From Bacteroidales bacterium (GTDB taxonomy: Bacteria; Bacteroidota; Bacteroidia; Bacteroidales; VadinHA17): DNA of 7,550 bases. Shown here piece after piece: positions 1 to 7,550 of this stretch. The stretch is from NCBI GenBank assembly GCA_025455535.1, contig JALOMM010000065.1, positions 1 through 7,550 on the forward strand, written 5' to 3'. The notes under the pieces are model-generated. The model had not been told where the DNA came from and made no database searches. It saw only the letters and a program-made list of their open reading frames with translations. The position numbers and the translations under genes were made by a program. The first letter of the stretch is position 1. Each line of letters begins with the position of its first letter.

Positions 1-864
1 AACGAGTATCGCCTTCAGCTTGCCTGAATACTCCACCAGGAAACCCATGTTATTCTGCTCGGCTAGGCTCTTCATCAGCAGTGAGAATTCATCCTCCGCC
101 GAAAAATATTTTTCATTGAAGCGATTGACAATCAGAGTTGCCTGTTCGTCATCATAGGTGCCTGTTCTGAAGAAACCCAGTATCTCACCCGTGGCGTCGT
201 ACATATTCAGTGCCTCTCTCACATCCTGAATATCAGCTATGATGGTCCCTTTGTCAAGAGCCGTTATTCCAAATTCCACTGTCCCGCAGAGTACGAAATT
301 GTGCATCGTCAGCTCTCCGTACATGCTTGATCCTACCAGCGTGAAGCGATCACCGGGATTGATTTCCAGTTTATCTGCAAAATCGCTGCTGAGTATTGCT
401 TCATTCCTGGTCATGGGCAGGCGGCCACTCCTGAGTGATGAGGTGATATTCATCCGTTCTGCCTCATCGTTTCGACCTGACAGCATATCTATCCCTATAC
501 CAAATGCCGGCCCCTGTGCCCTTGTCTCGCCTGCAGTGTCGGGAACGTCAATCAGTCCTCCGAAATAAATGCGCTCTGCAAAATCCATCTCCGGTATCTC
601 TGATGAGATGATGCCGGTAAGGGTATCAGTACCCAGAATGGCCAGATCATTCGGTGACTGACCTGCGTTCTCCGAGTAAGCGCCGGTCATTATCTTTACA
701 TGACCCGCTGCAAACCTTGCATTAAATTCAATGCTGTTTCCTATAACACCTGTCATCCATGCATGGAAGACTACGGTAAGCATTACGCCGGTAGCTGTTA
801 CGATTAACGGTATCAGGCTGCGGTTTCTGTCCCTGATGAGCCCCTTGAAAAGAAATCTGATCAT
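1..864 (-). CDS. ABC transporter permease, FtsX/LolC/E-like (3' end cut by window edge)
   Basis: This inner-membrane permease subunit is the likely heterodimer partner of the permease encoded just upstream. Only 288 codons are visible, with no stop before the window edge; full members are about 390-420 residues, so the last three membrane segments are missing here. Seen: a short basic N-terminus (MIRFLFKGLIRDRNRS), one hydrophobic segment at about residues 17-38, then a long extracytoplasmic domain with the GHVKIMTGAYSE stretch typical of LolC/E and MacB-type permeases and a repeated 'NEAILSS..A..L.I.PGD.FTL' fold core. The ATG overlaps the previous gene's stop as ATGA and has a strong Shine-Dalgarno 5 bases upstream, so the start is well supported. 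Known of the family: four-helix type VII ABC permeases transmit ATPase movement to a periplasmic domain rather than forming a classical channel. The cargo cannot be read from the sequence. Confidence 0.9.
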   Translation of the reverse strand, partial: MIRFLFKGLIRDRNRSLIPLIVTATGVMLTVVFHAWMTGVIGNSIEFNARFAAGHVKIMTGAYSENAGQSPNDLAILGTDTLTGIISSEIPEMDFAERIYFGGLIDVPDTAGETRAQGPAFGIGIDMLSGRNDEAERMNITSSLRSGRLPMTRNEAILSSDFADKLEINPGDRFTLVGSSMYGELTMHNFVLCGTVEFGITALDKGTIIADIQDVREALNMYDATGEILGFFRTGTYDDEQATLIVNRFNEKYFSAEDEFSLLMKSLAEQNNMGFLVEYSGKLKAILV

Positions 865-2033
865 TGCATCCTCCCCCTTAAAGCTTCTGTGGGATTAAGC
901 CTGGCAATTTTGCGCGAAGGCCAGTAGCTGACGATGGTGGTTACCAGCATCACTATAAATACTGTTCCTGCAATAAGTCCGAGGCTGTACACCGGGTATA
1001 GCTTTTCAGCCATTGCAATGCCGTAGTCGCTGCTTTTGACAGGTATGGCAATGCCGTTTACGGCCTGCAATGTCAGCAGCGGGATTCCGTACAGTGCCCC
1101 CACCATTGCTGCCAGCACGGAATTCATCGCTCCCTCGATGGTAAACAGCTTCACAACCTCTCCCCGGGTCATGCCCAGTGCCACATAGGTTCCGATCTCC
1201 TTCTGCCTCCTGAATATCGAGAACACCTGGGTGTCGAACACTGCAAGCATCGCAAGCATGAGCAGGATAGCCCATATTATCATTCCCATCGAGCTTTTTG
1301 CCTTGATGATCTGCTCTATGTCTGCCAGCAGCGTCCTGTGGTCCTTGAATACCCACTCTTCATTTACAGGGATGCCGCCTGACATCTCTCCGGCTATGAT
1401 TAATGTTGCCTCACCCGGCAGGAGCATCATCTCACGTAGTTTTTCCATCGGTATCCACACCTGCCCCACGTCGACAGTCGGCACTGTGGTTTCAAAGATT
1501 CCGGAAATCCTGATCTCTGTGGCATCGAAAGTACCATTCCTGTCACGCCACCGCAGTGTCACATAATCACCCTCACCGAGCTTTGTGTTCTCAGCCATGG
1601 TACTGCCGATAATGGCGGGTATATCATTATCAACTGATACCAGCTTTTCTGTCGGCAGGGCCAGGAGCTTCTGTTCAGGGGGTATACCCTTGATAAGGAC
1701 TGACTGCATCCTTCCGGCGGGAAAGATGGTCCCCTGTGCAATGAGAACCGGAACTACGGAGGTGTCATTGGCAATTGCCGCCAGCTCACCGGGAATGGTG
1801 CCATGGCTGTCAGATAACGTAAACGGATCGTAGGGGTCATAGCTGGCATGCCAGTACTGACCGCCCCCTATTTCCCACTTGATCATGTCATTTTTAGCCT
1901 GACGGTCCCATCCTTCCAGCAGCCCTTTGGTCCATATGATAATGACAAATGAGAATGAGAGAACTATGACGTTGAGCCAAGTTCGTAATCCTGCTCCCAG
2001 GAGGTTTCTGAATGCCAGATTGAATGCCATCAT
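861..2033 (-). CDS. ABC transporter permease, FtsX/LolC/E-like (390 aa)
   Basis: This is a complete inner-membrane permease of the MacB/LolC/E/FtsX class. Seen: transmembrane helix 1 at about residues 19-36, a large extracytoplasmic domain at about 40-248, then helices at about 249-270, 302-325 and 350-371. The cytoplasmic link after helix 2, FSIFRRQKEIGTYVALGMTR (271-290), is the classic FtsX 'rE.G...alG.tr' coupling segment, and the end NPTEALRGRM matches the family's 'P..ALR' tail. Length is normal. The extracytoplasmic core (PAIIGSTMAENTKLGEGDYVTL, 139-160) aligns by eye with the same region of the next gene's product, so the two are paralogues. The first of two adjacent ATGs is favoured because GGAGGA lies 7 bases upstream. 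It starts 15 bases after the ATPase stop and overlaps the next permease by 4 bases. The YWHASYDPYDPF stretch (60-71) is aromatic-rich and may be specific to this subfamily. Confidence 0.93.
   Translation of the reverse strand: MMAFNLAFRNLLGAGLRTWLNVIVLSFSFVIIIWTKGLLEGWDRQAKNDMIKWEIGGGQYWHASYDPYDPFTLSDSHGTIPGELAAIANDTSVVPVLIAQGTIFPAGRMQSVLIKGIPPEQKLLALPTEKLVSVDNDIPAIIGSTMAENTKLGEGDYVTLRWRDRNGTFDATEIRISGIFETTVPTVDVGQVWIPMEKLREMMLLPGEATLIIAGEMSGGIPVNEEWVFKDHRTLLADIEQIIKAKSSMGMIIWAILLMLAMLAVFDTQVFSIFRRQKEIGTYVALGMTRGEVVKLFTIEGAMNSVLAAMVGALYGIPLLTLQAVNGIAIPVKSSDYGIAMAEKLYPVYSLGLIAGTVFIVMLVTTIVSYWPSRKIARLNPTEALRGRMQ
870..879 (-). promoter_or_regulatory. Shine-Dalgarno of the second permease gene
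   Basis: On the minus strand this reads AAGGGGGAGG, ending 5 bases before the ATG at 864. It lies inside the end of the preceding permease gene. Together with the ATGA overlap it fixes the start and suggests coupled translation of the two permeases, which fits equal amounts for a heterodimer. Confidence 0.75.
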
Positions 2034-2040
2034 GTGCGCT

Positions 2041-2046
2041 TCCTCC
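2041..2046 (-). promoter_or_regulatory. Shine-Dalgarno of the first permease gene
   Basis: The minus strand reads GGAGGA, 7 bases before the ATG at 2033 and 10 bases before the second ATG. It lies in the 15-base gap after the ATPase stop. The spacing favours the upstream ATG, giving an MMAFN start. Confidence 0.7.
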
Positions 2047-2048
2047 GG

Positions 2049-2750
2049 TTAGTTTTTTTCAATGATCTCATCCCTGTCTACTTTCCCGTCAAGAAGAATA
2101 ATCTTTCTCCTGACATAGCTTATTACTTTCTCATCATGTGTGGCAAAGAGGAATGTTGTCTGGAGTTCACGGTTCAGCTTTTCCATCGTCTGCAGTATGT
2201 TGTGGGAGTTTGCTGCATCAAGGTTTGCCGTAGGCTCATCAGCAAGAACAATGGCTGGTCTCTTCACCATGGCACGCGCTATTGCGACACGCTGGCTCTC
2301 GCCGCCTGAGAGCTGTGCCGGCCGTGATTTAATCTTGTCAGTAAGACCTACCCATTCCAGGGCATCAAGGACCATCTGTCTGCGTTTGGCGGTTTCTATC
2401 CCCTGAAGCAGCAGGGGAAACTCAACATTCTCAAAAACGGTGTGCACCTGGAAGAGATTATAGCTCTGGAAGATAAAGCCCAGCTTTGACTTGCGCAGAG
2501 AAGCCGAGGCTGCCGGTGTGAGACCGGCGACAGACTGCCCGAGTATGACTGCCCTCCCCTCGGAAGGGACATCGAGGGTACCGATAATATTGAGAAGCGT
2601 TGTCTTGCCTGACCCGCTCGGCCCTATAATACCTGCAAACTCACCCTTTCCGACTGTGAGATCAATGCCGTTCAGAGCGGTGAACCTGCCGCTTCCCATT
2701 GGAAAGTGTTTTTTGAGACCTTCAATTGTTATTATCGTTTCGTTGTCCAT
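2049..2750 (-). CDS. ABC transporter ATP-binding protein, LolD/MacB-type (233 aa)
   Basis: This is the cytoplasmic ATPase that powers the two FtsX-type permeases encoded next to it. Every motif of an active nucleotide-binding domain is present: Walker A GPSGSGKT (43-50), Q-loop glutamine at 95 in FIFQSYNL, signature LSGGE (147-151), Walker B IVLADE (167-172) with the catalytic glutamate at 172, D-loop around ANLD (175-178), and the H-loop histidine at 205 in FATHDE. Length is typical of LolD and the ATPases that pair with separate permeases; there is no fused membrane domain as in MacB itself. The ATG at 2750 has no clear Shine-Dalgarno (upstream bases are TTTCTATGTCAG) and lies 20 bases after the barrel gene's stop, so translation may depend on coupling or on SD-independent initiation, which is common in Bacteroidota. 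The ATPase class is certain; the cargo (lipoprotein, lipid, peptide) is not. Confidence 0.97.
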   Translation of the reverse strand: MDNETIITIEGLKKHFPMGSGRFTALNGIDLTVGKGEFAGIIGPSGSGKTTLLNIIGTLDVPSEGRAVILGQSVAGLTPAASASLRKSKLGFIFQSYNLFQVHTVFENVEFPLLLQGIETAKRRQMVLDALEWVGLTDKIKSRPAQLSGGESQRVAIARAMVKRPAIVLADEPTANLDAANSHNILQTMEKLNRELQTTFLFATHDEKVISYVRRKIILLDGKVDRDEIIEKN

Positions 2751-2770
2751 CTGACATAGAAATTAATTGC

Positions 2771-3925
2771 TTAGATATCGAGTACCACCATGATCTGAAA
2801 TCCTTTCCCTGCAAAACTATTGCTGTCATCGCTGCCAACAAACACGGTAAGCTTATCAGGATTCCAAAATGCCATTAAATATAGACTTATATAATCATAT
2901 TTCAGCTGGAGGTTTAGAAAACGGTACCACTCTTCCGTATCCCAGTTATAGTATACCAGGCCTGAAATACTGTGGGAAAGGAACAGAGGGTAACTGAGAG
3001 AGAGTGTTGAGAAATTCCGGGTTGTCTTCATCTGCTCATCTTCAGCATTGTTGGAATAGTGGAAGAATTCCGAACCGGCATTCAGCCCCTTTCCCAGCGG
3101 GAAAGTATAATCAATTCCAAGGCTGTAATAGGTCTCCCACCGGGTAACAAGCAGATTATCCTTGTCGTTTAGTTTTCCGGAGTATTCAAACCATATTCCC
3201 GGTCCGACGTCCCATTTGCCGTCAAGGGCAAACATCTGTTCCGTAAAACGGGTGTCAGTAACCAGGGGATTGCCGGCATAAAGCTCAGAATAATCGGCAT
3301 CGCGGTGGTGATAGCTGAAAGCAATCTCTCCCATGGGCACAGGCAGCTGAAGCCGGCCCCCATACTCCGGAATATCATAGACTGAGGGAACCACTTCCCA
3401 TCCTTTGGTCCCCTTGTTCCCGTAGAGAGTCCACAGCCAGATGTTCGCGTTGTTATTGAAATAGTATCGCCCGAGGAGGGCGTAGACACCGTTGGTCAGC
3501 TGAAGGGGATCCCTGAAGTCGATATTGTCAAACCACATCAGCGGCCGGAGAATATTTGAAGAACCGAAGTTGATTTTTTGCAGCCCTGCCCTTATCTCAA
3601 GATTGGAGGTCGAATATCTCATCCAGAGACGGTAGGCCTTGAAGTCATATGTTGCTGTATCTAATTCAGCACCTGTAAATAACAGATTTCCATATGTGTT
3701 AACAGATAATTCCGCATCGAATTTGCTGTTCCTGCCTGTCTTCCATGAAGGACTGAGGGTGGGAATATATCTAATACCCGCCTGGGTGTACAACTGTTCT
3801 GTATAATTTGACCCGACCCAGGTGCTTATCTGGTTGTCAAAGCCAAGAGTCAAATTCTGTCCACTGATTGCCTGCGGAAGGCACAAGATCAATGCTATGC
3901 ACTGGTATAAAATCCCGGATCTCAC
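2771..3925 (-). CDS. Predicted outer-membrane beta-barrel protein (384 aa, GTG start)
   Basis: I do not recognise a named family with certainty. Seen: an N-terminal signal peptide (hydrophobic core about residues 5-16, likely cut near SG|Q, 22/23), then a chain of alternating polar and aromatic segments rich in Tyr, Trp and Phe, as in outer-membrane barrels, such as NIWLWTLYG, ETYYSLGIDYTF and YDYISLYLMAFW. The stretch LEIRAGLQKINFGSSNILRPL (109-129) followed by FDNIDFRDPLQ recalls the 'R.G.Q.i.wG ... D..np.D' signature of porin-like barrels such as DUF1302 and alginate-export proteins; this is resemblance only. The C-terminus ends MVVLDI, not the usual aromatic residue. The GTG start is supported by the signal peptide, by GGAGAAGG 9 bases upstream, and by a GTGA overlap with the preceding stop; no in-frame ATG lies nearby. 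Between an acyltransferase-like gene and an ABC transporter, it is a plausible outer-membrane partner for export or lipid delivery. Confidence 0.78.
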   Translation of the reverse strand: MRSGILYQCIALILCLPQAISGQNLTLGFDNQISTWVGSNYTEQLYTQAGIRYIPTLSPSWKTGRNSKFDAELSVNTYGNLLFTGAELDTATYDFKAYRLWMRYSTSNLEIRAGLQKINFGSSNILRPLMWFDNIDFRDPLQLTNGVYALLGRYYFNNNANIWLWTLYGNKGTKGWEVVPSVYDIPEYGGRLQLPVPMGEIAFSYHHRDADYSELYAGNPLVTDTRFTEQMFALDGKWDVGPGIWFEYSGKLNDKDNLLVTRWETYYSLGIDYTFPLGKGLNAGSEFFHYSNNAEDEQMKTTRNFSTLSLSYPLFLSHSISGLVYYNWDTEEWYRFLNLQLKYDYISLYLMAFWNPDKLTVFVGSDDSNSFAGKGFQIMVVLDI

Positions 3926-4713
3926 CCTTTTGGTCCTTCTCCTTTTTTGTCTGCGACTCTTTTAATAACTGCATACAGGCTGTACCTGTCAAGTGCTCTG
4001 CCCATGCTTTTTCCCATAAGGATAAATTCCGATACCTCCTCTTCGGTAAAGGCCAGACCCCTCTTCTTTTTCAGCTCGATGAAGCGGGCCAGATCCTTTC
4101 GCATTGAGATCCAGAAGAGGCAATTGATCAGAACCATGAAGAGGGCATATCGCCAATCGTCAAACCAGTACCACAGCCAGAAGATGAGTATCACATATCC
4201 CCCCCAACGTATTACGAGTACGCTTCCTGCAATGAATCCGAGAAGGGTCGCAGCGAGGTTGGCAACGATAAGTCCGAACCAGTTGATTACGAGAATAATT
4301 CCGAGTATGGATGATTCCCCGCGGCCGCCGACAAACCTGTAATAAACCGGGAAATTATGGCCTGCCACACCGAAGAGTGCTACCAGGAGGAACCAGAGCT
4401 CACCAGGGAAAGCAAGTTTGACCAGCAGAGTTGGTACGGCAACTTTCAGCATATCGGCAACAGAGGTGATGACTCCATACCTGGCCCCGATCTTTTTAGT
4501 CACCAGGGTGGCACTTACCAGGTCTGATTCGAAGGTCTCATCAGAATGAGGTACCGGCTCCGAGAAAGGTTCAATCTGACTCTTCTTCGTTGCCAGATAA
4601 TAAACAATGCGGGCAAAAGAGACTGATCCGACAAGATAAGCCGTGACACTGCATATTATTGCAGTAAGCCATGGATGATCAGCCAGGTATGTAATTCCTT
4701 CACTCATAATCAT
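3922..4713 (-). CDS. Divergent PlsY-like (glycerol-3-phosphate acyltransferase family) membrane protein (263 aa)
   Basis: PlsY transfers an acyl group from acyl-phosphate to glycerol-3-phosphate in the inner membrane. Seen here: a PlsY motif 1 equivalent, YLVGSVSFARIVY (26-38); a motif 3 equivalent, GHNFPVYYRFVGGRGESS (118-135), matching GH.FPV...F.GGKG; and several hydrophobic segments (about 14-40, 92-117, 136-168, 171-184, 189-204). The motif 2 region (61-90, ending GVITSVADMLK) keeps the flanking 'G...G......D.LK' pattern but lacks the GSGNPGATN loop, reading SDLVSATLV instead, and GGKG is GGRG. At 263 residues it exceeds the usual ~200, with a charged C-terminal tail (205-263). I infer a related acyltransferase with a changed acceptor, or a non-catalytic homologue; it is unlikely to be the cell's housekeeping PlsY. 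The first ATG (4713) overlaps the preceding gene by 14 bases; a second in-frame ATG at 4707 is equally possible. No good Shine-Dalgarno is visible, so translation is probably coupled. Confidence 0.77.
   Translation of the reverse strand: MIMSEGITYLADHPWLTAIICSVTAYLVGSVSFARIVYYLATKKSQIEPFSEPVPHSDETFESDLVSATLVTKKIGARYGVITSVADMLKVAVPTLLVKLAFPGELWFLLVALFGVAGHNFPVYYRFVGGRGESSILGIILVINWFGLIVANLAATLLGFIAGSVLVIRWGGYVILIFWLWYWFDDWRYALFMVLINCLFWISMRKDLARFIELKKKRGLAFTEEEVSEFILMGKSMGRALDRYSLYAVIKRVADKKGEGPKG
3935..3944 (-). promoter_or_regulatory. Shine-Dalgarno supporting the GTG start of the barrel gene
   Basis: The minus strand reads AAGGAGAAGG, ending 9 bases before the GTG at 3925. It is embedded in the last codons of the PlsY-like gene (GEGPKG). 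It decides in favour of a GTG start, since the reading frame has no ATG that would keep the signal peptide. Confidence 0.65.
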
Positions 4714-7027
4714 GAACTGTTAAAAGTCCGTTTGATCCGTTTACCGTGACCTTGAGGCCGCTGCCCAGGGCACAGGCATTTGCAACTGAGACGAGGGCAG
4801 GGATACCCATTTCACGGGCAATGATAGAGCTGTGTGAGAGCATACCCCCGGTTTCAGATACTATGGCTCCGGCCTTGACGAGTATGGGTGTCCAGCTTAC
4901 GTCAGAGAAAGGTATCAGCACAATGTCTCCTTTTTCAACTGCCGTAAAATCATCTGTATTCCTTACGACCCTGGTCCTGCCTGTATAAGATCCGGATGAG
5001 GTGCCAATACCCGGATGATTTACGAACCTGCGGGTATCAGGCTGAGGAGCTTCATCACCATAGATAACCGGCGGAAGAACAATATCCTTTGTCTCATCCA
5101 TCTCTTTCTTGCGTTCCAGTATAAGCTCCCTGAAACGGCTGTTGCCCGGATTATCCGGGTCATTCAGAATCATATCTGTCTCTTCCTTATGGAGATAGAA
5201 GATGTCATTTTCAGACTCTATGAACCCTGCGGCCGCGAACTCCCTTCCGAGGCTAAGGAACAGCCTCCGGAAAAGACCGTAACCAAATATGTACAAAGAG
5301 CTGATCTGCTCGCGGTAGAGCTTGAATCTGCCGGCCTTAAGATAGGTTTTGAGCAGTGACCGGCTGAGCTTAATGCCCTTTTGTCTCAAGTCGCCAGGAC
5401 TGTAGAGTTCGGCTCTTGGCTCATGATTGGCTGAATTCAGTATCATATTGAAAACCTGATCCGGGTTTTCCTCCCATTTCGGGAATGAAAAGTCGTTGCC
5501 GCTCTCACTGAGATGACCGAAGTCTTTCATGAACCTGTCAAATTCCAGGGCTATTGATGCTGCTTCCGGAACTGACCTCAGTCGTTGAAGTGAACTGCAT
5601 CGTTCTCTCGGCCCTTCGGGAAGGCTTTCAATGGCGTTTTTGATCCTCATGACAGCCGGCATGGGTGTGTAGTCATCCAGCTGCGGAAAATCGCGACGGA
5701 AATCAAGATTGTCATAGCCGAGCCCCTTTTTGGCGAGCCCTTTCCTCAGTCTCTTGTGGTGGAGGGTCATCAGGATAGGGGCCATGATATTGATGTATGC
5801 CATCCGCTGACCTTCAGAAAAGAGGATTGAATAGTATTTGCCGAATGACCGTGCAGAAAAACCGTTCTCCAGTTCAGCCTCAATCGCGGTGAATCTTTTC
5901 TTAAGGTCATTGTATTCCGAGATGAGCTTCTTCTCGAACCTCATTTTGTCAATGATGAACCTGATAATTCTGAATGAATGCCTGAGTGTTTTAAAGCCGG
6001 GTTTTACTGAAGGCTTTTTATTGTCAGTGCTGAGCATCATCTGCTCGAGAGCGTCTGTTGACATTCCGAATTCACTGAATATCCTCCCCAGCGCCGCAAT
6101 GTTGAAATAAGTCTGGTAATAGAACGGTTTTGCCAGCTCATCAGGCTTGACACTCAGCGGGCCTGTTATTTCAGAAAGAATCTTTATCCATGTTCCGTTG
6201 ACCATGGGGATGTTCACTGACCATATCAGAGGCTTGACCTGCCCGGGCAGCATCTCCTTGGCCATCTTGTTGGAGTAGATATTAAGCTCCTTTCTTCCGG
6301 TTATCTGCCTGAGCTGAAGATAGTAAAGATGTTTACCGTCCCAGGCCCATTCAATATCGGCGTGCTCCCCGTAATACCGCCTCAGCTTTACCGTATCGGC
6401 TGCCACCTTCTTTATCACAGGGTAGAAGCGATGGCCACTGTCACCTTCAATAACCTCATCCTTCCTTATCCTCCACCGCAGGGGGGTAACCCCTTTCTGA
6501 ACAAGATCTTCCCCGAGACCCTCCAGGGCTTCGATCACTGTCTCATTCTGGTTTGTGACCGGATTGCGGCTGAAGCTGACTCCTGCCAGCTGTGATTCGA
6601 TCATCTCCTGGATGATAACGCCGCATTTAATGGCTGTGATGCCTGTCCTCCTTAGATACTCGTTGTCATTAAGGTGTGAAGCTGACTCCCATACTGTGCG
6701 AACTGCGTCAATGATATTCTCTGTTCCCCGCACATTCATGAGAGTCTGAAACTGACCGGCAAAGCTGAACTCCTTTGAATCCTCAGCAGTGGTAGAGGAC
6801 CTGACCGCATAAAGTTTATCAGGCAGAGCAAGCACCTCCCTGCGGAGCTCATCCAGCACTGCAGATCCTGCCTTAAGATACCTTTCATGCGCCCTGATTG
6901 TCACAAGGAAGGTGAGGGGGATGTTAAAACCGTACCTGTGAAGAAAAATCAGGGAATTGGCCTTATTCCCTGTCTCGTCTGATTTGAGCCCTGCTCTTAA
7001 CCGCTTTATCAGTTGCTGATTCTTCAT
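4700..7027 (-). CDS. PEP-synthase-like / rifampicin-phosphotransferase-like dikinase (775 aa)
   Basis: This is probably a cytoplasmic phosphotransferase that moves a phosphate from ATP through a swivelling histidine to a small acceptor. Seen: an N-terminal PPDK_N ATP-grasp domain (about 15-245) with YAVRSSTTAEDSKEFSFAGQ (73-92), IIQEMIESQLAGVSFSRNPVT (138-158), EGLGEDLV (169-176) and IEWAWDG..LYYLQLRQIT (225-243); a helical middle (about 250-650) containing FGHLSESGNDFSFPKW and ENDIFYLHKEE, which resemble the substrate-binding part of rifampicin phosphotransferases; and a C-terminal PEP-utilisers domain (about 670-775) with ETGGMLSHSSIIAREMGIPA, catalytic His732. The histidine domain is last and there is no PEP/pyruvate-binding TIM barrel, so a true PEP synthase is ruled out. 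Rifampicin resistance is not implied: the middle domain sets the acceptor, and the downstream genes point to a lipid or head-group precursor. It is the first gene of the tight cluster; AGGA lies 4 bases before the ATG. Confidence 0.86.
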   Translation of the reverse strand: MKNQQLIKRLRAGLKSDETGNKANSLIFLHRYGFNIPLTFLVTIRAHERYLKAGSAVLDELRREVLALPDKLYAVRSSTTAEDSKEFSFAGQFQTLMNVRGTENIIDAVRTVWESASHLNDNEYLRRTGITAIKCGVIIQEMIESQLAGVSFSRNPVTNQNETVIEALEGLGEDLVQKGVTPLRWRIRKDEVIEGDSGHRFYPVIKKVAADTVKLRRYYGEHADIEWAWDGKHLYYLQLRQITGRKELNIYSNKMAKEMLPGQVKPLIWSVNIPMVNGTWIKILSEITGPLSVKPDELAKPFYYQTYFNIAALGRIFSEFGMSTDALEQMMLSTDNKKPSVKPGFKTLRHSFRIIRFIIDKMRFEKKLISEYNDLKKRFTAIEAELENGFSARSFGKYYSILFSEGQRMAYINIMAPILMTLHHKRLRKGLAKKGLGYDNLDFRRDFPQLDDYTPMPAVMRIKNAIESLPEGPRERCSSLQRLRSVPEAASIALEFDRFMKDFGHLSESGNDFSFPKWEENPDQVFNMILNSANHEPRAELYSPGDLRQKGIKLSRSLLKTYLKAGRFKLYREQISSLYIFGYGLFRRLFLSLGREFAAAGFIESENDIFYLHKEETDMILNDPDNPGNSRFRELILERKKEMDETKDIVLPPVIYGDEAPQPDTRRFVNHPGIGTSSGSYTGRTRVVRNTDDFTAVEKGDIVLIPFSDVSWTPILVKAGAIVSETGGMLSHSSIIAREMGIPALVSVANACALGSGLKVTVNGSNGLLTVHDYE

Positions 7028-7137
7028 TTTCCTGACAGTGGCTAAACTATTCCTGTTGCTGAAATTGTCTTTTTCTTCAGATCAGAAGCTGAATATGTTG
7101 TTAATCACTAAGTCAAAAATAGCAATTCTTTTAAGAC
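7028..7137 (-). other. Intergenic region upstream of the six-gene cluster
   Basis: This 110-base AT-rich stretch separates the DUF2867 gene from the phosphotransferase gene and is the only gap in the window longer than 20 bases. It holds one promoter-like octamer. I see no convincing stem followed by a T-run, so there is no clear terminator for the upstream gene, and read-through from it into the cluster cannot be excluded. Confidence 0.6.
7114..7121 (-). promoter_or_regulatory. Candidate Bacteroidota-type -7 promoter element
   Basis: The minus strand reads TATTTTTG, an exact match to the TAnnTTTG -7 consensus known for Bacteroidota primary sigma factors. It lies 86 bases before the ATG at 7027, leaving a leader of roughly 80 bases. 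No clear -33 TTG/TTTG box is seen about 20 bases upstream (only TTAGG), and an 8-base AT-rich match can arise by chance, so this is a tentative call that also depends on the organism being a member of that phylum. Confidence 0.3.
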
Positions 7138-7550
7138 CTAACCGGCCTCCGACAGTTTCTTTATCATTCCTCCAAAGACAATTGCATGAAGCGGAACGAT
7201 AGAATACCAGTACATTCTCCCCCATAAGCCCAGTGGCCTGAATGTTGCGGTCTGGCAAAGCATGTTGTCTTCGATCCGGAATTCGAGCCATGCTTCTCCC
7301 GGGAGTTTCATCTCAGCATAGATCACTCTCCAGAAGTCGAGTGCATCGCCCGGCGAGATGTCGCTGCTGTTTCTTCTCCCCCTGCGAAGGCCGACTCCTC
7401 CTGACAGTTTGTCGAGGAATCCGCGCAGCCCCCATAGCCAGTTGGCATGATACCATCCGGTTTTTCCCCCTATTGCCCATATCTTATTGAGTACTGCTTC
7501 CTCATCGCTTATCGGCATTACTCTTTTGTCGAACAGGCAACCGTAAACCG
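7138..7550 (-). CDS. DUF2867 C-terminal part of an NmrA/SDR-type oxidoreductase (5' end cut by window edge)
   Basis: The visible 136 residues match the DUF2867 region usually found after an NAD(P)-binding Rossmann domain in atypical short-chain dehydrogenase/NmrA-like proteins. Seen: IGGKTGWYHANWLWGLRGFLDKL.GG.GLRRGRR, then GDALDFWRV, AEMKLPGEAWLEF and ATFRPLGLWGRMYWYSIVPLH. The frame stays open from the ATG at 7518 to the window edge (VYGCLFDKRV precedes it), and that extension also fits the family, so the ATG at 7518 is internal and the true start lies outside. No cofactor-binding residues are visible because the Rossmann part is missing, and the substrate is unknown. Compared with the family as I remember it, about a dozen residues appear to be missing between DFWRV and AEMKLPG. 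It is on the same strand as the downstream cluster but 110 bases away, so membership of the operon is uncertain. Confidence 0.85.
   Translation of the reverse strand, partial: VYGCLFDKRVMPISDEEAVLNKIWAIGGKTGWYHANWLWGLRGFLDKLSGGVGLRRGRRNSSDISPGDALDFWRVIYAEMKLPGEAWLEFRIEDNMLCQTATFRPLGLWGRMYWYSIVPLHAIVFGGMIKKLSEAG

What the first reader, a model, noticed from the sequence alone, without database searches (positions are those of the whole stretch)
1..7027. Compact operon joining a phosphohistidine phosphotransferase, a PlsY-like acyltransferase, an outer-membrane barrel and a two-permease ABC machine
Seen: six same-strand genes with overlaps of 14, 4 and 4 bases and gaps of 20 and 15 bases. Known: RPH/PEP-synthase-like enzymes phosphorylate small molecules, PlsY acylates a phosphorylated alcohol, and LolCDE/MacB-type transporters handle lipoproteins, lipids or peptides from the inner membrane or periplasm. 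Inference: the order 'phosphorylate, acylate, export, cross the outer membrane' would make a dedicated pathway for an unusual phospholipid-like or lipidated product. I know of no described system with exactly this set.
Basis: partly seen in the sequence, partly recalled or inferred. Interest (0 to 1): 0.72.

Follow-up and report, generated by a model that had tools for sequence, protein, structure and literature searches.

The report
Kinase–acyltransferase lipid synthesis and export operon
Bacteria from several distant groups, and some Asgard archaea, carry a kinase-like gene beside (or fused with) an altered version of a lipid-making enzyme gene, often next to genes for an ABC transporter of a type that includes exporters, a set that likely makes and is predicted to export an unknown lipid-like molecule.

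Summary
In detail: six minus-strand genes with the stated overlaps and gaps. Permease 2 runs off the contig; another contig of the same MAG (90% identical over the overlap) supplies its end and a seventh, LolA-like gene. The core, an RPH-type phosphohistidine kinase homologue plus a PlsY-family gene, recurs in distant phyla: PlsY lies within 6 kb in 39 of 46 loci of this kinase family (Bacteroidota, Chloroflexota, WOR-3, Clostridia, Asgard archaea and others), against 0 of 18 loci of a sister kinase family. FtsX/MacB-type permeases sit near 28 of 46. In some Asgard archaea the two enzymes are one fused protein. The kinase keeps its catalytic residues. The PlsY partner has lost most of the clamp for glycerol 3-phosphate; in the window's type the acyl-phosphate site is kept and Asn180 is acidic (26 of 26). 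So "PlsY acylates a phosphorylated alcohol" is disfavoured. More likely the kinase makes the acyl-phosphate donor and PlsY passes the acyl group to another acceptor; the ABC transporter would export it, with LolA and an 18-strand barrel added in Bacteroidota. The chemistry is inferred. Four literature searches found no description. New variant of a known kind.

The parts
4700..7027 (-). RPH-type phosphohistidine kinase homologue (PEPS-like): N-terminal ATP-grasp, middle substrate domain, C-terminal His swivel domain (predicted catalytic H732)
   Evidence: PPDK_N and PEP-utilizers; best PDB relatives RPH-Lm 5fbs/5hv1 by sequence and fold; K22, R76, E226, R572, E573, H732 kept in the family
3922..4713 (-). 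PlsY-like membrane acyltransferase, module type A (G3P phosphate clamp changed, acyl-phosphate loop kept)
   Evidence: PF02660 66 bits; 5xj5 aaPlsY 2.3e-9; residue table
2771..3925 (-). Predicted 18-strand outer-membrane barrel, OprD/Occ- and AlgE-like fold
2049..2750 (-). ABC ATPase, LolD/MacB/FtsE class
   Evidence: ABC_tran; LolD model 223.7 bits, below its 307.75 cut-off
861..2033 (-). FtsX/LolCE/MacB-type permease 1
   Evidence: FtsX PF02687; LolCE model 45.7 bits, cut-off 362.45
1..864 (-). FtsX/LolCE/MacB-type permease 2, N-terminal part; the rest (FtsX domain) is on contig C73 (L003:9114-10073 -), followed there by the LolA-like gene L003:8377-9117 -
7028..7137 (-). 110-base upstream gap, the only sizeable intergenic space and the likely place of the promoter (inferred)
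   Evidence: the sigma-70 consensus scan lists no site inside 7028-7137 and does not cover Bacteroidota promoters
7138..7548 (-). C-terminal part of a DUF2867 gene cut by the contig end; a full-length relative (L004) starts with an NAD(P)-binding domain. Lineage-specific neighbour upstream of the kinase in 3 relatives
   Evidence: PF11066; L004:2813-4237 NAD_binding_10 + DUF2867; also L007, L009

Best explanation
This is one conserved gene module in which an RPH-type phosphohistidine kinase homologue and a PlsY-family acyltransferase, encoded side by side or as a single fused protein, likely act as a pair: the kinase is predicted to turn a carboxylic acid into an acyl-phosphate, the PlsY-like enzyme would pass the acyl group to an acceptor other than glycerol 3-phosphate, and the neighbouring ABC transporter would export the product. 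Shown: the conserved neighbourhood, the fusions, the retained kinase residues, and the loss of most of PlsY's G3P clamp with the glycine loop kept. Inferred: ATP + carboxylate -> acyl-phosphate + AMP + Pi through phosphorylated H732; attack by a non-phosphorylated acceptor, possibly an amine in type A because an acidic residue replaces N180; export by the FtsX/MacB-type transporter; in Bacteroidota, hand-over through the LolA-like carrier to the outer membrane, with the 18-strand barrel as an exit or receptor. The product, acyl chain and acceptor are unknown.
For: (1) PlsY-family gene or domain within 6 kb of the kinase in 39 of 46 module loci, 0 of 18 sister-family loci. (2) Fusions: L094, L095, L096; 21 of the 120 listed homologues of L094, the query itself included, carry PF02660 + PF01326 + PF00391. 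(3) In 261 Chloroflexota genomes, module-type PlsY above 150 bits occurs in 4 (G066, G599, G647, G650), all with the module kinase; next best 90.6 bits. (4) FtsX-type permease in 28 of 46 module loci, 0 of 18 sister loci. (5) Kinase catalytic residues kept, equivalent to RPH-Lm K22, R117, E297, R666, E667, H825. (6) Type A PlsY: R45 0 of 27, K104 0 of 27, H177 0 of 26, N180 0 of 26 (11 D, 15 E); acyl-phosphate residues His92 27 of 27, GGxG 27 of 27, Thr or Ser at 41 in 22 of 27; [quoted passage not shown] (7) 0 of 12 Asgard module genomes have PlsX, the usual source of acyl-phosphate; 15 of 15 bacterial ones do. (8) 8 of 8 bacterial module genomes probed also hold at least one higher-scoring PF02660 protein outside the module, so the module copy is an extra one there. 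(9) Kinase and PlsY tree distances correlate: r 0.41, maximum 0.33 in 5000 permutations, n = 34.
Against: No RPH-family kinase acting on a carboxylate is known to me (recalled). Bacterial hosts have PlsX, so they do not need a new acyl-phosphate source. In type B PlsY (the fused proteins plus L025 and L097) acyl-phosphate residues His92 (3 of 23) and Thr41 (0 of 23) are also lost, though N37 (20 of 23) and the glycines (G102, G103 23 of 23, G105 21 of 23) are kept. Type A loses the SGN stretch around N37, so it might not be an acyltransferase at all. No FtsX permease was found near 18 of 46 kinase loci; five loci carry a ferrochelatase-like gene, four of them without a nearby FtsX permease. 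L008 and L087 hold an open kinase frame without PlsY; L078 has an in-frame TAG. Kinase and PlsY trees disagree for the type B group. The window's own MAG shows no second PF02660 gene, but it is 62% complete.
Confidence: 0.42

Rival explanations
1. One reading: the kinase phosphorylates an alcohol other than glycerol, the PlsY-like enzyme acylates that phospho-alcohol, and the ABC system exports the unusual phospholipid.
For: The known substrate of the best-studied relative, RPH-Lm, is a hydroxyl (RIF C21-OH, PMC4844700, passages). Type B PlsY keeps S/T35 in 23 of 23 and N37 in 20 of 23. The two enzymes are linked and fused.
Against: The phosphate clamp of the acceptor site is gone: R45 0 of 27, K104 0 of 27, N180 0 of 26 and acidic in type A; R45 2 of 23, K104 0 of 23, N180 4 of 23 in type B. 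An acidic residue would repel a phosphorylated acceptor (N180D data).
Confidence: 0.22
2. The kinase homologue works as a condensing ligase like prodigiosin ligase PigC, activating one precursor to join another; the PlsY-like enzyme adds an acyl chain and the transporter exports a natural product.
For: The PigC and RedH models are among the best NCBIfam matches of the kinase (204 and 191 bits, far below their cut-offs of 1300 and 1350). Patchy distribution (4 of 22 same-genus genomes counting the window's own). MacB-type permeases, with an HlyD adaptor gene beside them in L084 and L085.
Against: No other biosynthetic gene is constant in the neighbourhoods listed. A direct two-enzyme fusion fits a two-step transfer better.
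Confidence: 0.15
3. Detoxification and efflux: an RPH-like enzyme inactivates a xenobiotic and the MacB-type pump expels it.
For: Closest solved relatives are rifampin phosphotransferases; MacB-class transporter; patchy distribution.
Against: The catalytic residues of RPH are kept but the NCBIfam RPH model is missed by far (186 of 999 bits). Detoxification gives no role for PlsY, the most constant partner, nor for LolA and a barrel.
Confidence: 0.08
4. Ordinary envelope housekeeping: LolCDE-LolA lipoprotein sorting next to phospholipid genes, brought together by chance.
For: Best NCBIfam match is LolD for the ATPase and LolCE for permease 1; LolA-like gene.
Against: Both fall well below the Lol cut-offs. 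Kinase and PlsY stay together in phyla where no LolA-like or barrel gene was seen nearby, and are fused. 8 of 8 bacterial module genomes probed have another, higher-scoring PF02660 protein.
Confidence: 0.05

Closest known systems
FakAB fatty acid kinase feeding PlsX/PlsY (Staphylococcus, Enterococcus)
   Same: A kinase makes acyl-phosphate from free fatty acid for PlsY (PMC9136124, abstract and start of the introduction); the same logic is proposed here
   Different: The module kinase shows only PPDK_N and PEP-utilizers domains, an RPH/PEPS-type enzyme predicted to turn ATP into AMP + Pi, where the FakA structure holds ADP as product; it is linked or fused to PlsY, and the PlsY has changed its acceptor site
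Rifampin phosphotransferase RPH-Lm
   Same: Domain order ATP-grasp, substrate domain, C-terminal His swivel; K22, R117, E297, R666-E667, H825 equivalents kept
   Different: Middle domain shows no sequence match to RPH between about residues 268 and 478, and the NCBIfam RPH cut-off is missed; constant partner is PlsY; no rifamycin context seen
PlsY glycerol-3-phosphate acyltransferase
   Same: PF02660 family, GH and GGxG motifs kept in type A
   Different: Most of the G3P clamp and His177 lost; about 11-residue loop insertion before motif 1 in type A
LolCDE/LolA and MacAB transporters
   Same: ATPase plus FtsX-type permeases, LolA-like carrier
   Different: Below LolD and LolCE cut-offs; co-operonic with the enzymes; permease size differs by group (two of ~390-425 aa in Bacteroidota, one of ~860-890 aa in Chloroflexota and some Clostridia and Erysipelotrichaceae, one of ~410-422 aa in Asgard and L024)

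Membership tests
Canonical PlsY (G3P acyltransferase) | PF02660 match over gathering score | tested here: met
   66 bits, cut-off 24.1
Canonical PlsY (G3P acyltransferase) | G3P clamp S35, R45, K104, N180 and His177 | tested here: not met
   Window: S kept, R45K, K104R, N180D, H177M; across type A R45, K104, H177, N180 all 0 of 26-27
Canonical PlsY (G3P acyltransferase) | Acyl-phosphate site: His92, Thr41, Loop3 GGxG | tested here: met
   Window has all three; type A His92 and GGxG 27 of 27, Thr/Ser41 22 of 27; type B mostly lacks His92 and Thr41
RPH/PEPS-like phosphohistidine kinases | ATP-grasp at N-terminus and His swivel at C-terminus with catalytic His | tested here: met
Rifampin phosphotransferase RPH | NCBIfam RIF_Ptrans_rph equivalog cut-off | tested here: not met
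   186.2 bits against 999
PEP synthase PpsA | C-terminal PEP-binding TIM barrel (PF02896, recalled) and equivalog score | tested here: not met
   No PF02896 match; TIGR01418 166.6 of 739.75 bits
LolCDE | LolD and LolCE equivalog cut-offs | tested here: not met
   223.7 of 307.75 and 45.7 of 362.45 bits
LolA-like PF17131 | PF17131 over gathering score | tested here: met
   L003:8377-9117, 202.4 bits; on contig C73, not in the window
OprD/Occ or AlgE porins | 18-strand barrel fold | tested here: inconclusive
Fatty acid kinase activity (FakA-like function) | Forms acyl-phosphate from a carboxylate | not testable with these tools
   Needs an assay
FakA family | FakA/DAK2-type domains (recalled) | tested here: not met
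   The kinase matches only PPDK_N and PEP-utilizers in Pfam

The most novel reading that the evidence does not exclude
A second, unrelated kind of fatty-acid (carboxylate) kinase, running through phosphohistidine, has been welded to a PlsY that no longer uses glycerol phosphate, creating a self-contained acyl-phosphate synthase and acyltransferase shared by bacteria and Asgard archaea that makes a non-phospholipid acyl compound and exports it; the module-type 'plsY' genes of Asgard archaea are then not phospholipid genes.
Probability: 0.33. Interest if true: 0.82.

Novelty: new variant of a known kind. Interest (0 to 1): 0.6.

Why it matters
Asgard plsY genes are cited as possible signs of bacterial-type phospholipids in archaea (PMC6431249, which doubts it, PMC6737245, PMC13400652; passages). 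The residue test here splits Asgard PlsY into two classes: the 30 best-scoring proteins keep every G3P-clamp residue tested, whereas the kinase-linked ones have lost most of them. For 8 of the 12 module-bearing Asgard genomes the only PF02660 match or matches are low-scoring, and in at least 7 of these 8 such a gene lies beside or inside the kinase gene. That makes a debated inference checkable gene by gene. The module would also be a new route to acyl-phosphate and an enzyme pair that can be expressed and assayed.

Tried and rejected
PlsY in Asgard archaea as module-only: I first thought the module gene was the only PlsY-family gene in Asgard archaea (two genomes). The full scan gave 87 of 227 genomes with PF02660, and 30 of 30 top-scoring ones are canonical in the residues tested, so I dropped it. 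I also dropped the idea that both substrate sites are the same in all module PlsY: type B (fused) proteins differ.

A link to metal or tetrapyrrole chemistry (ferrochelatase/CbiX-like gene in L014, L017, L018, L026, L098; HupE/UreJ beside the cluster in L017 and L028) was considered and left open, because it covers a minority of loci. The neighbouring genes that I scanned gave no constant substrate clue. The consensus promoter/terminator scan was uninformative: 14 promoter-like sites against 8.7 expected, 7 terminator-like sites against 6.7, and it does not cover Bacteroidota promoters. Foldseek alone ranked general porins first for the barrel; VIA-align ranked OprD/Occ and AlgE first. The A4 profile search is partly circular: 3 of the 4 Chloroflexota positives had a sequence in A4 (G650 did not); the negatives are not circular. 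Of the six Chloroflexota genomes with a module kinase, G723 (kinase without PlsY) and G768 do not appear in the listing, which left 22 genomes without a match unnamed; I take both as not among the 261.

Rows dropped before the 46-locus count: L021 (kinase fragments at a contig end), L032 (under the 200-bit limit), L083 (two sister-family genes whose bits sum to 573, counted as sister), L100 (other half of the genome of L099), and duplicates L077, L101, L102, L103; L003 was counted with the window. L099 (a 364-bit fragment) was added by hand. Two of the 18 sister loci (L080, L115) have a short flank on one side. Sister-family genes found were not fetched.

Literature: searches listed no paper describing this kinase-PlsY pair or fusion; the library holds open-licence papers only, and I saw listings, not full texts.

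Full report
What is in the window. The six reported genes are there, on the minus strand, with exactly the stated overlaps (14, 4, 4) and gaps (20, 15). The window is a complete 7550-base contig (C32) of a 62%-complete MAG, probably of Bacteroidales (order inferred from the named relatives). Contig C73 of the same MAG ends in 549 bases 90% identical to the window's first 549, and continues with the rest of permease 2 and a LolA-like gene (PF17131, 202 bits) overlapping it by 4 bases. I read this as a strain-variant contig break, so the operon likely has seven genes: kinase, PlsY-like, barrel, ATPase, permease 1, permease 2, LolA-like. Seven relatives (L004, L005, L006, L007, L009, L011, L014) show all seven in that order.

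The core is widespread. A scan of one genome per species found 30 loci in Bacteroidota, Chloroflexota, WOR-3, Gemmatimonadetes, Clostridiales, Acidaminobacter, Erysipelotrichaceae, Thermotogaceae and Loki-/Hodarchaeota (one weak Methanoregula locus was dropped). Genome searches with profile A2 at E up to 1e-80 gave 8 of 393 order-level, 10 of 350 Chloroflexota, 13 of 227 Asgard, 10 of 147 WOR-3-phylum and 7 of 291 Acidaminobacter-class genomes. Scores fall into two groups, about 550-1100 bits (module family) and about 270-410 bits (sister family); one genome, G925, has the module kinase only as two fragments of 364 and 308 bits. By that split the module family is in 3 of 393, 6 of 350, 12 of 227, 3 of 147 and 1 of 291. 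In the window's genus the kinase occurs in 4 of 22 genomes, counting the window's own.

Linkage. Of 46 module-family loci, 39 have a PlsY-family gene or domain within 6 kb. Of the 7 without, L016, L024, L092 and L093 lie at contig ends, L008 and L087 have no PlsY, and L078 has a broken kinase. 28 of 46 have an FtsX-type permease (in L016 on the opposite strand). Barrel genes occur in 10 of 14 Bacteroidota loci and 0 of 32 others; LolA-like genes in 7 of 14 (8 with C73) and 0 of 32 others. Of 18 sister-family loci, 0 have PlsY or FtsX (thresholds in that script). Gene order and permease size vary between phyla while content persists. In three Asgard genomes the PlsY-like domain is the N-terminus of the kinase protein (L094, L096, and L095 where the contig begins inside it), and 21 of 120 listed homologues of L094, the query included, have this fusion (149 matched). 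Seven of the 120 carry SDR domains instead; in the two I read, the SDR is N-terminal. In 261 Chloroflexota genomes, module-type PlsY above 150 bits occurs only in four, all with a module kinase. Kinase and PlsY trees share the main clades (mirror correlation 0.41, maximum 0.33 in 5000 permutations, n = 34, no support values), but the type B PlsY of L025, L094, L096 and L097 groups apart from its kinases' relatives, which hints at separate recruitment.

What PlsY tells about chemistry. In aaPlsY the G3P phosphate is clamped by S35, R45, K104 and N180, with S142 and H177 on the 2-OH, while acyl-phosphate is held by Loop3 (residues 104-107), H92, A40 and T41 (PMC5700162, passages). In 27 module type A proteins (26 where the C-terminus is present) R45, K104, H177 and N180 are absent from all, with D or E at N180 in 26 of 26, while H92 and GGxG are in 27 of 27 and T or S at 41 in 22 of 27; S35 is kept in most but not all. 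Of 13 comparison PF02660 proteins from the same genomes in that table (L025 set aside as type B), R45 is kept in 12, K104 in 9, H177 in 9 and N180 in 9; the Chloroflexota ones and L065 (WOR-3) deviate most. All 30 top-scoring Asgard PlsY proteins have S35, R45, K104, H177 and N180. Type B proteins (21 fused, plus L025 and L097) lose K104 (0 of 23), H177 (0 of 23) and mostly R45 (2 of 23) and N180 (4 of 23), keep S/T35 and G102-G103 (23 of 23), and mostly lose H92 (3 of 23) and T41 (0 of 23). So the acceptor is probably not G3P. For type A the acyl-phosphate site looks intact. A kinase fused or coupled to such an enzyme would most simply provide the acyl-phosphate. Asgard hosts support this: 0 of 12 have PlsX, against 15 of 15 bacterial hosts; but the Asgard fusions are of type B, where the acyl-phosphate side chains are changed too. 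The closest known logic is FakAB feeding PlsY (PMC9136124, abstract and start of the introduction). That the kinase takes a carboxylate is inference, without precedent in its family that I know of (recalled).

Export. FtsX/MacB/LolCDE-class transporters move lipids, lipoproteins or peptides from the outer face of the inner membrane (established knowledge, recalled). The addition of LolA-like and barrel genes only in Bacteroidota fits delivery to an outer membrane. The WOR-3 and Gemmatimonadetes loci show neither, so this is not a rule for all diderms. HlyD adaptor genes beside the long permease in L084 and L085 fit export too.

Limits. Most loci come from metagenome-assembled genomes; counts are not corrected for shared ancestry; kinase-PlsY co-occurrence in Chloroflexota rests on four genomes, three of them in the query profile. 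The 46 loci mix two kinds of sampling.

Noticed in passing
L014:1066-2322, L017:12981-14270, L018:10104-11342, L026:1796-3043, L098:7612-8859: A ~415-aa ferrochelatase/CbiX-like protein with an apparent N-terminal membrane segment sits inside or beside the kinase-PlsY cluster, in four of five cases without a nearby FtsX permease.
   Followed up: partly
L017:8699-9334 and L028:8534-9145: HupE/UreJ family genes next to the kinase-PlsY cluster in two Chloroflexota loci.
   Followed up: no
Asgard genomes G872-G927: PF02660 matches lie in open frames of about 400 aa in many genomes, so another PlsY fusion or extension may exist.
   Followed up: no
Proteins P0199, P0205, P0207, P0208, P0213, P0220, P0228: The kinase family is also found with SDR oxidoreductase domains (N-terminal in P0205 and P0208).
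   Followed up: partly
L003:5659-7403; L004:13499-15243; L009:19487-20185: An NAD-dependent epimerase/3beta-HSD-like gene and a PF02544 steroid-dehydrogenase-like gene lie downstream of the LolA-like gene in the window's MAG and in L004; L009 has a relative of the PF02544 gene.
   Followed up: no
L003:2127-4886: Adjacent octopine/nopaline dehydrogenase-like and B12-binding genes.
   Followed up: no
Window 1-549 and L003:9525-10073: Two contigs of one MAG end in the same permease at 90% identity, suggesting a strain-variant assembly break.
   Followed up: partly
L008:1692-4019, L087:1044-3584, L078:7630-9369: Kinase genes without PlsY: two with open frames of normal length, one with an in-frame TAG.
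   Followed up: partly
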